From NCBI RefSeq assembly GCF_000381005.1, contig NZ_KB908401.1, forward strand, positions 1 through 35,141: a stretch of 35,141 nucleotides of DNA, read 5' to 3'. Source of the DNA: Selenomonas bovis DSM 23594. Lineage in GTDB: Bacteria > Bacillota > Negativicutes > Selenomonadales > Selenomonadaceae. The notes beneath the pieces are model-generated. The model was not told the DNA's origin. It did not search any database and saw only the letters and a program-made list of their open reading frames with translations. Shown one piece after another: positions 21,966 to 25,046 of the stretch (position 1 is its first letter; every line of letters begins with the position of its first letter). The position numbers and the translations under genes were made by a program.

Positions 21966-23213
21966 TCACCTGTTGTTCAAATCCTCAATGGCCTGTGCTG
22001 CGCCCATGATGCCGATGCAGGCATGCTCAAAGGTAAGACCGCCTTGCAGATAGACGTTGTACGGCGGACGCAAAGGACCATCCGCACTGAATTCAATGGA
22101 TGCGCCTTGGACGAAGGTCCCCGCAGCCATGATAATTTTATCCACATAGCCCGGCATATCCCATGGCTCTGGCGCAGCAAAGGAATCGACCGGCGAATAT
22201 TTCTGAATACCACCGCAAAAAGCGATGAGTTTTTCCGCTGAACCGAGCTCGATTGCCTGGATGATATCTCCACGCGGTTCTGTCGGCAAAGGCGACGTCC
22301 GGTATCCCAGCTTAGCGAACATGCCTGCGGCAAAAATAGCCCCTTTGATTGCTTGTGCCGTCACATGTGGCGCAAGGAAAAAACCTTGGAACAGCAATCT
22401 GTTATTGGAAAGGCTTGCTCCGAGTTCATCCCCCATACCGGGTGCTGTCAGACGATAGGAGGATAACTCCACAAGCTCTTTCCGCCCCGCGATATAGCCG
22501 CCAGTCGGTGCAAGACCGCCTCCTGGGTTTTTGATGAGAGAGCCCGCCATGATATCGGCACCAACCTGCGTAGGCTCAAGCGTATCGACAAATTCCCCAT
22601 AGCAATTATCGACAAAGCAGATACAGCCAGGATTCACGCGGTGCACTTCCTCCGTGATGCAGCGGATATCATCAATGGAAAGTGGCGGCCGCATACTATA
22701 CCCACGAGAACGCTGAATCTCCACCATCTTTGTCCTATCGGTAACGATATGTTTGATATTCTCGATATCCACGTGCCCCTCTACTAACGGAAGCTCTCGG
22801 TATCGGATGCCAAATTCTTTCAGGGAACCAGGGCTAGGAGCAGCATAGCCAATGACTGTCTGCATGGTATCATAAGGTGTCCCCGTCAAGGAAATGAGCT
22901 CATCGCCAGGACGCAGAATACCAAATAAGACCGTTGCCAAAGCATGCGTACCACTCACAAACTGCGTCCGTACCAATGCCTTTTCGGCACCAAAAACATG
23001 CGCATATAATTCTTCAAGTTTGCCGCGCCCAATGTCATCATAAGCATATCCTGTCGAAGTATTGAAATGTGCATCGGATACCTTGCATTCTCGCATGGCA
23101 TCAAGCACCTTCAACGTATTGGCCTCGGAAATCTCGTCTAACGACTGAAATGCTTCGGCAGAATCGCGAAGCACTTCCTGCTTTATCTCCTTTAATTTTT
23201 TTGAAAATGTCAT
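21966..23213 (-). CDS. PLP-dependent methionine gamma-lyase-family protein (YnbB, 'aluminium resistance')
   Basis: The 415-residue protein belongs to the fold-type I PLP enzymes named aluminium-resistance/methionine gamma-lyase family, as B. subtilis YnbB. Seen are the substrate region STGYAYDDIGRGKLEELYA, the aromatic-stacking region RTQFVSGTHALATVLFG, CFVDNCYGEFV with the PLP-pyridine Asp, and the Schiff-base lysine in GSLIKNPGGGLAPTGGYIAGR. The ATG at 23213 follows AAAGGAGTAGAAGGG. The biochemical substrate is not established. It lies 18 bases behind hflX; an hflX-ynbB pair is conserved in Firmicutes, which supports co-transcription. Confidence 0.88.
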   Translation of the reverse strand: MTFSKKLKEIKQEVLRDSAEAFQSLDEISEANTLKVLDAMRECKVSDAHFNTSTGYAYDDIGRGKLEELYAHVFGAEKALVRTQFVSGTHALATVLFGILRPGDELISLTGTPYDTMQTVIGYAAPSPGSLKEFGIRYRELPLVEGHVDIENIKHIVTDRTKMVEIQRSRGYSMRPPLSIDDIRCITEEVHRVNPGCICFVDNCYGEFVDTLEPTQVGADIMAGSLIKNPGGGLAPTGGYIAGRKELVELSSYRLTAPGMGDELGASLSNNRLLFQGFFLAPHVTAQAIKGAIFAAGMFAKLGYRTSPLPTEPRGDIIQAIELGSAEKLIAFCGGIQKYSPVDSFAAPEPWDMPGYVDKIIMAAGTFVQGASIEFSADGPLRPPYNVYLQGGLTFEHACIGIMGAAQAIEDLNNR

Positions 23214-23231: not shown

Positions 23232-25046
23232 TTATTGATCTGCTATCACATACTTGGAAAATAGATGTAAAAGATTCTGTGGAACATTGGCGGTCACGCG
23301 TATGCCGTATGCGAGGAATTCCTGCGACACGATTGCATTCTTTTCGTGGAGTAAAGCGGGCAACCGTCCTTTCTCAAATGGCAGGAGAAGCTGTAACATT
23401 TTCCTGTGCTCAGAAAAGAAAGCATCAAGACGATCGGCCAGTGTCGTTAGATTCTCCCCTGTCCACGCAGAAAGCAAAATACCATCACGATCACGCAAAA
23501 GCACCTGCTCCCGCAGATGATCCTCACAAAGATCCACTTTATTGAAAACATAGAGCGTGGGCTTTCTTTCCACCTGGATTTCACGCAGGACTCGCACAAC
23601 CGCCTCGATCTGTTCCTCATACTGCTGACTGCTTGCGTCGACTACATGGAGCAGGAGATCTGCTTCTCTGACCTCCTCTAACGTTGCTTGAAAGGCGGGC
23701 ACCAAAGTATGTGGCAGTTTCTGGATAAAGCCAACTGTATCTGTCAACAGGATATCCTGTCCGCTCTTTAACGTGATGCGACGTGTCAAAGGATCAAGCG
23801 TCGCAAATAGCTTGTCTTCCGCAAAGGCGCCTGCGCCAGTGAATGCATTGAGCAATGACGTTTTTCCAGCATTCGTATACCCCACCATGGCTACGAGGGG
23901 AACGGCTGCTGCTTTCCTTTGCTCACGATGCAAACGCCTATGCTTGCTGATGGCCTGAAGTTGTGTTTCGAGGACATGGATGCGTTTACGGATACGGCGA
24001 CGGTCAAGCTCTAGTTTCGACTCTCCTGGCCCCCTCGCACCGATACCGCCACCAAGGCGTGACATGAAGAGTCCCTGACCGCCGAGACGCGGCAAATGAT
24101 AACGCAACTGTGCCAGCTCAACCTGCAGCTTTCCCGCTTTCGTACGTGCCCGTTGTGCAAAGATATCGAGGATCAGTGCTGTGCGGTCAATGACCTTGCT
24201 GCCCAAAGCCAGTGTGAGGTTCCTCTGCTGGGACGGCGTAAGTTCATCATCAAAAATGACCATAGTCGCACCAGTCTGTTGTATTGCTAGGGAAAGTTCC
24301 TCTACCTTGCCACGTCCGAGGAAAAAAGCTGCGTCTGGCTTCCCTCTGCGCTGGATGCACGTCCCGATGACAGCGGCACCAGCTGTGTCTGCAAGGCGCT
24401 GTAGCTCCGCCATGCTGTCTTCGATGGAAAGCACAGCAGCATGGCTCTCAATCTCCACCCCCGCCAAAAGAGCGGTTTCTTTTTTCTTGCCGGTTGTCCG
24501 TTCTATATGCTTCAACAGCTTTTTTTGAATCGATGCCAAAAGCCGATTCACATCGATCCGCAGGAGATCCCTCTCTCGACAAGGACCTACAACCGTAACG
24601 TCCGGCGTTCCATCTTCCTGGAAATCCCCTGTCAAGAATCCCACGGTGCCGAAAATCTCTCCCTTGTCTGTTTTGCTGATGGCCCCCATAAAATCAAAAG
24701 ATATGCGGCGCAAGGATGAGATATCTGGCTCACTAAGGGTAGAATCACCGCCGGGATGTGTATGCAAGCAACGGATGCCAGAAAGGCCCTGCAAGCGCCT
24801 TGTACCTACCTCTGGCAGATCCACAGTTGCATGGTCGCCGATAGAGACAGCCATCACGCGTCCGTTGCCATTTAGGTAAACAGCAATCTCTCTGCCCATT
24901 TGCTGCGTAAGATCAAGTAACTCTTCATCAAGCTCCGGTGTCGAAAATTGCTCTCGCGGTACCAAATATGTATAAATCTGCTCGAGACGTTGAACAAGCG
25001 ATGTCTTGAGATTCGTCGAATCTCCATAAAGAATTGATTTCTTCAC
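23232..25046 (-). CDS. hflX: GTPase HflX with N-terminal JAMM-motif extension
   Basis: HflX binds the 50S subunit and splits stalled or stressed ribosomes. The 604-residue protein is about 180 residues longer than E. coli HflX. The HflX part runs from about residue 195: [40 protein letters not shown], then the G domain with P-loop GYTNAGKTS (389-397), G3 DTVGF (436-440) and G4 NKVD. The N-terminal 170 residues carry E53, then HTH (95-97), seven residues, S105, two residues and D108. This fits the JAMM/MPN+ signature E...HxHx7SxxD of zinc isopeptidases and RadC-like proteins. The start is GTG 25046 behind GAGAGG. It lies between a NdpA-like gene and the ynbB-like gene. Confidence 0.93.

What the first reader, a model, noticed from the sequence alone, without database searches (positions are those of the whole stretch)
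23232..25046. Intact JAMM metalloprotease motif fused to the ribosome-splitting GTPase HflX
The N-terminal extension of HflX (residues 1-170) contains E53 in [16 protein letters not shown] at 95-97, and S105/D108 at exact JAMM spacing (HxHx7SxxD). The HTHPGG context is like RadC and other MPN+ proteins. All predicted zinc ligands are present, which suggests an active or recently active isopeptidase/peptidase attached to a ribosome rescue factor. It could cleave a tagged or nascent peptide when HflX splits stalled ribosomes. The motif is seen directly; JAMM chemistry is family knowledge; the coupling to ribosome rescue is inference. Long HflX forms exist in Clostridia and Negativicutes, so the fusion may be widespread but overlooked.
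Basis: partly seen in the sequence, partly recalled or inferred. Interest (0 to 1): 0.65.

Follow-up and report, generated by a model that had tools for sequence, protein, structure and literature searches.

The report
Ribosome-splitting GTPase carrying a zinc-peptidase domain
In many Clostridia-like bacteria the ribosome-rescue protein HflX carries an extra front domain that looks like an intact zinc peptidase of the deubiquitinase (JAMM) type, a long-conserved fusion that appears unannotated and whose target is unknown.

Summary
The gene at 23232-25046 (-) encodes 604 aa: an N-terminal JAMM/MPN+ domain (about residues 1-165), a helix, and a complete HflX (190-604). They are not a chance motif. 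Of 299 genomes of the phylum, 49 match the domain by single-sequence search, each time fused to the HflX core; all five residues are kept in 47 of 49 at 31% median pairwise identity. Among the window's nearest relatives (same class) 40 of 40 copies are intact. The family profile's PDB hits are AMSH-type JAMM deubiquitinases (best E 7e-4) and Prp8; it aligns with RadC at E 2.1e-6; the AlphaFold model (pLDDT 89.8) lies nearest to MPN domains. Curated models miss the window protein's domain: scores are under the cut-offs. I saw no paper describing it in the searches I ran. Inference only: zinc binding, hydrolysis, coupling to ribosome splitting. The substrate is unknown. Verdict: real, old, widespread in Bacillota (other phyla untested); a new combination of two known families; interest 0.62.

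The parts
23232..25046 (-). JAMM-HflX fusion gene, 604 aa, GTG start, stop included
24552..25046 (-). N-terminal JAMM/MPN+ domain, residues 1-165
   Evidence: AF2 model pLDDT 89.8; VIA-align rows span model residues about 31-168; profile hits
24888..24890 (-). E53, predicted general base, start of a strand
   Evidence: 47 of 49, 78 of 78, 40 of 40; role recalled from JAMM family knowledge
24756..24764 (-). H95-T96-H97, H95 and H97 predicted zinc ligands
   Evidence: same calls; aligned to HNH of RadC and HTH of AMSH-LP/sst2
24732..24734 (-). S105, predicted serine that stabilises the intermediate
   Evidence: same calls; role recalled
24723..24725 (-). D108, predicted third zinc ligand
   Evidence: same calls; role recalled
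24480..24551 (-). connecting helix and short linker, residues 166-189
   Evidence: helix 166-184 in both models
23235..24479 (-). HflX core, residues 190-604 (N-terminal, helical, G and C-terminal domains)
   Evidence: TIGR03156 residues 192-541; PF13167, PF16360, PF01926
24015..24053 (-). conserved loop [13 protein letters not shown], residues 332-344; by analogy the HflX loop that reaches the peptidyl-transferase centre
   Evidence: sequence; low pLDDT 324-338; that the helical domain's loop reaches the PTC is from PMC12493154 section 4; that it is this loop is recalled
23859..23882 (-). P-loop GYTNAGKT, residues 389-396

Best explanation
This is HflX with an intact JAMM/MPN+ metallohydrolase domain fused to the N-terminus of its ribosome-binding part. 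Most likely the domain binds one zinc through H95, H97 and D108, with E53 as base and S105 stabilising the intermediate, and cuts a peptide or isopeptide bond. The HflX core delivers it to the 50S intersubunit face: the fusion point is where the short N-terminal extension of mycobacterial HflX is attached, which sits near uL16, helix 38 and H69-71. So the peptidase would meet its substrate when HflX enters a stalled or hibernating ribosome or holds the split 50S. Shown here: fusion, fold-level similarity, conserved active-site residues, intact GTPase motifs. Inferred: zinc, catalysis, place on the ribosome, timing by GTP. The substrate is unknown; a ribosome-bound protein (stalled nascent chain, hibernation factor or ribosomal protein) is my first guess.
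For: Five active-site residues kept in 47 of 49, 78 of 78 and 40 of 40 homologues (overlapping sets). PDB profile hits (19 sequences up to E 10) are AMSH-type JAMM proteases and Prp8 only; RadC profile E 2.1e-6 with [14 protein letters not shown] over HNHPSGDPTPSQED. Model pLDDT 89.8; the 50 listed VIA-align rows are all MPN/JAMM chains by title or by my knowledge of the subunit, best PfJAMM1 Z 7.3, rmsd 3.3, 110 aligned. In the same frame as the HflX core in 49 of 49 census proteins, 78 of 80 named ones (two cut by contig ends) and 40 of 40. Among 60 near relatives 39 of 41 HflX-bearing genomes have the fused form. Position of an HflX N-terminal extension on the ribosome: PMC12493154 section 4.
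Against: No biochemical datum. Z values of 5.3-7.3 are below 8, and Foldseek gave no match under E 0.001, with unrelated chains (LOV, GAF, sensor domains) mixed in from rank 6. Active-site geometry in the model could not be measured. E53 lies just outside the hhalign match. Six homologues that I read keep the domain or a remnant without a full site (L049, L050, L161-L164), and they do not all decay the same way: f40 lost all five residues, f84 lost both histidines but keeps the Glu, Ser and Asp. So the domain can outlive its site. Gene neighbourhood gives no substrate. Prp and RqcH do not co-vary with it.
Confidence: 0.58

Rival explanations
1. The domain is a real JAMM zinc peptidase, but its substrate is not on the ribosome: it trims or removes a ubiquitin-like or sulphur-carrier protein, or digests a peptide, and HflX is only its partner in expression or a GTP-controlled switch.
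For: Known prokaryotic JAMM enzymes act on ubiquitin-like proteins (PfJAMM1 with SAMP2 and a bacterial Ubl-deubiquitinase complex are among the listed folds). The same genome also holds a Prok-JAB protein in a 174-aa frame.
Against: No ubiquitin-like or E1-like gene was seen to recur beside the fusion in 80 named loci: I looked at the 22 widest clusters of frames of 100 aa or more and the 14 widest of frames of 45-140 aa; smaller clusters were not looked at and the identification was by eye. The fusion is to a ribosome-binding protein with its GTPase motifs kept.
Confidence: 0.2
2. The domain is mainly structural: an MPN module that helps HflX grip or pry the 50S (as the mycobacterial extension disorders H68-H71), with the metal site serving stability, not catalysis.
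For: Lineages without a full site still keep the domain or a remnant (L049, L050, L161-L164). MPN domains without activity exist in translation and splicing factors (eIF3h and Prp8 are among the hits; their inactivity is recalled). The mycobacterial extension acts mechanically (PMC12493154 section 4).
Against: S105 and E53 are not zinc ligands in JAMM enzymes (family knowledge) yet are as invariant as the ligands. In f84, though, Glu, Ser and Asp survive the loss of both histidines, so they may have a second use.
Confidence: 0.19
3. Chance resemblance: HTH...S..D is an accident in an unrelated extension.
For: The pattern arises in 208 of 200,000 shuffles; single-sequence Pfam scores are under the cut-offs.
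Against: Conservation across the family, profile and fold matches, one relative at the RadC cut-off (G307).
Confidence: 0.02

Closest known systems
HflX (TIGR03156), ribosome-splitting GTPase
   Same: N-terminal, middle and G domains matched; 466 bits over a cut-off of 216.75
   Different: About 190 extra N-terminal residues with a JAMM domain; E. coli HflX has a 22-residue extension (PMC4770234 passage), mycobacterial HflX 39-58 residues (PMC12493154 section 4)
RadC-like JAB domain (PF04002)
   Same: HNHPSGDPTPSQED aligns without gaps over [14 protein letters not shown]; hhalign E 2.1e-6; nearest Foldseek hit 2qlc
   Different: Window domain 15.6 bits, under the cut-off of 22.1; fused to a GTPase; RadC is a separate gene in the same genome
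AMSH/AMSH-LP/Sst2 JAMM deubiquitinases
   Same: IHTHPTQT..SSVDL over the profile's ciHTHPsgs..LSevDl; best PDB profile hits, E 7e-4 to 1e-3
   Different: Only about 30-60 residues aligned; no ubiquitin in these bacteria known to me
PfJAMM1 (archaeal JAMM protease, solved with SAMP2)
   Same: Best structural row, Z 7.3, rmsd 3.3, 110 aligned
   Different: 11% identity; the chain is 129 residues, not fused to a GTPase in that structure
Mycobacterial HflX N-terminal extension
   Same: Attached at the same end of HflX; such extensions are noted also in several Clostridium and Paenibacillus (PMC12493154 section 4)
   Different: 39-58 residues; no peptidase motif mentioned in the section and passages I read

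Membership tests
JAMM/MPN+ metallopeptidase | E...HxHx(7)SxxD motif, conserved in the family | tested here: met
   47 of 49, 78 of 78, 40 of 40 (overlapping sets, pattern bias)
JAMM/MPN+ metallopeptidase | MPN fold | tested here: met
   AF2 pLDDT 89.8; 50 of 50 listed VIA rows MPN/JAMM by title or by my knowledge of the subunit, Z 5.3-7.3; moderate Z, Foldseek E 1.2e-3 at best
JAMM/MPN+ metallopeptidase | sequence-profile relationship | tested here: met
   PDB profile search E 7e-4, hits AMSH-type and Prp8; hhalign with RadC E 2.1e-6, probability 89
JAMM/MPN+ metallopeptidase | zinc binding and peptide/isopeptide hydrolysis | not testable with these tools
   needs protein
RadC (PF04002) | score over the curated cut-off | tested here: not met
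   15.6 of 22.1 bits for the window domain; one relative, G307, reaches 22.1 in a 604-aa frame. I do not file it as RadC.
Prok-JAB (PF14464) | score over the curated cut-off | tested here: not met
   15.0 of 25 bits for the window domain
HflX (TIGR03156) | score over the equivalog cut-off | tested here: met
   466 bits against 216.75
HflX (TIGR03156) | GTPase motifs G1, G3, G4 | tested here: met
   residues 389, 436, 502
HflX (TIGR03156) | splits 70S ribosomes | not testable with these tools
   needs ribosomes

The most novel reading that the evidence does not exclude
A bacterial ribosome-splitting GTPase that is also a protease: GTP-driven entry of HflX into stalled or hibernating ribosomes brings a JAMM peptidase to a ribosome-bound polypeptide and cuts it, a built-in proteolytic arm of ribosome rescue, old in Bacillota and lost repeatedly.
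Probability: 0.35. Interest if true: 0.82.

Novelty: new variant of a known kind. Interest (0 to 1): 0.62.

Why it matters
The HflX proteins in the papers I saw are those of E. coli, Listeria, S. aureus and mycobacteria, among others. Among sampled genomes of this phylum that carry HflX about a quarter (54 of 228) have this extra domain, and 47 of those 54 have the full set of peptidase residues. If it cuts something on the ribosome, bacterial ribosome rescue has a proteolytic step, with a defined active site, simple point mutants and natural site-less homologues as controls. If it does not, it is still an annotation gap covering an old, conserved domain.

Tried and rejected
Substrate clues from neighbours: clustering of frames of 100 aa or more in 80 named loci (22 widest clusters looked at) found, besides the fusion, a ynbB-like gene in 23 loci, then a LexA-like one in 11 (names by eye; wider clusters on the opposite strand are shadow frames). 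Frames of 45-140 aa (14 widest clusters looked at) gave a ferredoxin-like gene in 11 loci and no ubiquitin-like one that I recognised. Prp replacement (the peptidase that trims bL27, recalled): Prp present in 34 of 42 fusion genomes and 33 of 38 without; rejected (42 of the 47 intact-fusion genomes used, five under 90% complete dropped; the 38 were picked by me from the HflX-positive list). RqcH family co-occurrence: 80 of 80, not informative.

Spread outside the phylum: not tested, because a centre outside the phylum could not be named. The named hits were 78 Bacillota and 2 unplaced of the 80 kept out of 239, but the scan pattern came from this family.

Literature (library of open-licence PubMed Central papers only): 'HflX' with 'JAMM' gave three papers, where the word is 'jammed', 'jamming' or an author's name (passages). 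'HflX' with 'MPN domain', 'JAB' as a whole word, and 'Mov34' gave none, and HflX/Clostrid/metalloprotease/JAB together none. 'HflX' with 'N-terminal extension' gave 11: I read passages of two and a section of one, the rest as listing. JAMM with bacteria, GTPase, fused, ribosome gave 14: passages of one, passages of two more that were also, the rest as listing. Two broader searches were seen as listings only (20 of 1388). I saw none that describes the fusion.

Long HflX frames of 740-830 aa (family f50; L145, L150, L152, L158) have no match to the domain profile; in the three I printed the HflX core begins within about 45 residues.

Full report
What is there. The gene at 23232-25046 on the minus strand is one open frame of 604 codons with a GTG start. 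Residues 192-541 match the HflX equivalog model at 466 bits (cut-off 216.75), and three Pfam parts of HflX match above threshold. The first 190 residues have no match above a cut-off: RadC (15.6 bits, cut-off 22.1) and Prok-JAB (15.0, cut-off 25) appear only below threshold, and NCBIfam gives nothing for this part.

Is it more than chance. The bare pattern HxHx7SxxD arises in 208 of 200,000 shuffles of this protein, so I tested conservation. A single-sequence search with residues 1-200 over 299 genomes of the phylum found 49 genomes at E <= 0.001. I read all 49: each time the matching domain is in the same frame as the HflX core (for L049 the BLAST missed the N-domain, which searches match). 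Not every core is full length: L022 is cut near a contig end, and the three proteins of family f5 (L038, L040, L042; 535-537 residues) match the core only up to about 95 residues before its end. 47 of 49 keep E, H, H, S and D; L049 and L050, both of family f40, have lost all five. Median pairwise identity over the 49 is 31% in the N-domain and 49% in the core. With the two degenerate rows left out, the invariant columns of the domain are E53, G62, G70, H95, T96, H97, P98, S105 and D108, that is, the five predicted catalytic residues and four others.

Wider sampling. A scan of named bacterial contigs kept 80 of 239 confirmed relatives; 78 could be read as fusions, two are cut by contig ends (L097, L102), and one of the 78 (L122) has the core split over two frames. 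78 of 78 keep all five residues. Pattern bias: each contig was found through GIRCIHTH or REIAVYINR-like peptides, so part of this agreement is built in; S105 and D108 are in neither pattern. At least eight of the 80 are contigs of census genomes, judged by equal contig length. Ranks of the 80: 78 Bacillota and 2 unplaced; 44 Clostridia, 17 Negativicutes, 19 without class. They include Selenomonas, Mitsuokella, Megamonas, Phascolarctobacterium, Caloramator, Acetivibrio and Christensenella. Among the 60 genomes drawn as the window genome's nearest relatives (itself included), 39 have the domain, in 40 places, all 40 in frame with the core and intact (G000, G029 and G144 are also in the phylum census). 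41 of these 60 have HflX at all, so two, G348 and G349 with 460- and 450-residue frames, have HflX without the domain.

How common in the phylum. HflX is found in 228 of 299 genomes. The family profile finds the domain in HflX-bearing frames in 54 of 299: the 49 above plus G152, G179, G204, G277 (family f84) and G177 (f92). G150 (L161) shows two weak pieces, E 0.03 and 0.013, and would be a 55th. Of these additional ones I read L161, L162, L163 and L164 (G150, G177, G152, G204); G179 and G277 were not read. None of the four has the full site: in f84 (L163, L164) HTHP reads FTRL while the Glu, Ser and Asp positions are kept; in L162 the first His, the Ser and the Asp are gone; in L161 the whole motif stretch no longer aligns. 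The remaining 19 genomes' matches, and a few second matches, lie mostly in frames of 196-251 residues at E 8e-5 to 0.009 and are probably RadC or similar; I did not check them.

What the domain is. The profile of 47 sequences, searched against all PDB sequences, gives 19 distinct sequences up to E 10: AMSH-like protease, Sst2 and STAM-binding protein (JAMM deubiquitinases) from E 7e-4, and below them Prp8, whose matching part is an MPN-type domain by family knowledge. Member by member, 19 of 47 match Prok-JAB and 17 of 47 match RadC at E <= 0.1, best 5.6e-5 and 5.8e-4. Profile-profile comparison with 17 RadC domains gives E 2.1e-6, probability 89, with [14 protein letters not shown] over HNHPSGDPTPSQED; E53 lies one residue outside the aligned stretch, so its assignment rests on invariance and its place at the start of a strand. 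One close relative (G307, 604-aa frame) reaches Pfam's RadC cut-off. AlphaFold2 with the 47 sequences gives pLDDT 89.8, pTM 0.84. Foldseek's best PDB hits are RadC 2qlc (E 1.2e-3, probability 0.97, TM-score 0.27 by query length), BubCD and Npl4 MPN, with unrelated chains from rank 6 and no hit under 0.001. On re-alignment with VIA-align 2 the 50 listed rows are all MPN/JAMM chains by title or by my knowledge of the subunit, Z 7.3 (PfJAMM1, rmsd 3.3, 110 aligned) down to 5.3. Z under 8 alone may be a common arrangement, and the list draws on Foldseek's own ranking; together with the profile results and the motif it settles the family for me. I could not measure distances in the model.

HflX part. 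P-loop, DTVGF, NKVD and the GGGIGxRGPGExK loop are intact in the window protein. By exact pattern these four are found in 40, 49, 49 and 34 of the 49 census rows and in 57, 75, 75 and 63 of the 78 named rows; rows that miss an exact pattern were not examined one by one (some are cut). In the 43-row full-length alignment G389, Y390, T391, N392, G394, K395 of the P-loop and G333, G334, G336, R338-E342 of the loop are invariant. The full-length model has pLDDT 84.4 but pTM 0.60, so the mutual placement of the domains is open.

History. A quick maximum-likelihood tree of 106 HflX cores (61 intact, 6 degenerate, 39 without the domain; named rows thinned to 14 by me; rooted on E. coli) needs 8 changes for presence or absence of the domain; the three labels together also need 8, against a shuffled mean of 36.9; strongly supported branches force only one per label. 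The backbone is poorly resolved. The simplest reading is an old fusion, mostly inherited, with several losses of the domain. The degenerate rows fall in two places (f84; f40 with f83 and f92), which the different ways of decay also suggest, but one origin is not excluded. Gains and losses cannot be told apart by the count.

Mechanism. In mycobacterial HflX the short N-terminal extension touches uL16 and helix 38 and reaches the H69-71 junction (PMC12493154, section 4 read). The JAMM domain is attached to the same end of HflX by a helix and a short linker (residues 166-189). If HflX binds alike, the peptidase sits on the intersubunit face and not at the exit tunnel. That favours substrates there: a factor in the A site, a hibernation factor, a ribosomal protein tail, or the tRNA side of a stalled complex after splitting. 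All of this is inference. HflX of S. aureus is called a minor 100S disassembly factor (PMC7196661, abstract). Two candidate links were tested and gave nothing: Prp (34 of 42 against 33 of 38) and the RqcH family (80 of 80).

Novelty. Both parts are known; I did not find the combination in the papers I could search, many of which I saw as listings only. The 2025 review notes extensions in several Clostridium and Paenibacillus HflX proteins without a domain assignment in the text I read. I therefore call it a new variant of a known kind.

Noticed in passing
21966-23213 (-): Downstream gene resembles ynbB (aluminium-resistance/methionine gamma-lyase-like, name recalled), and a gene of this kind lies downstream of the fusion in 23 of 80 named loci; hflX-ynbB order is also that of B. 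subtilis by recall.
   Followed up: partly
L049, L050, L161, L162, L163, L164: HflX proteins that keep the N-terminal domain or a remnant without a full JAMM site: f40 lost all five residues, f84 lost both His but keeps Glu, Ser, Asp.
   Followed up: partly
L220 and L250 (genome G316): Two intact JAMM-HflX copies in one genome.
   Followed up: no
L122 (Fervidicella metallireducens): JAMM-HflX split over two reading frames, a frameshift or sequencing error.
   Followed up: no
L038, L040, L042: JAMM-HflX of family f5 is 535-537 aa and appears to lack the C-terminal domain of HflX.
   Followed up: no
L145, L150, L152, L158: HflX frames of 740-830 aa (family f50) without a JAMM match; from the three printed, the extra length lies behind the start of the core.
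   Followed up: no
window genome and relatives: Many genomes of the window's family lack HflX altogether, e.g. three of seven same-genus genomes counting the window's own.
   Followed up: no
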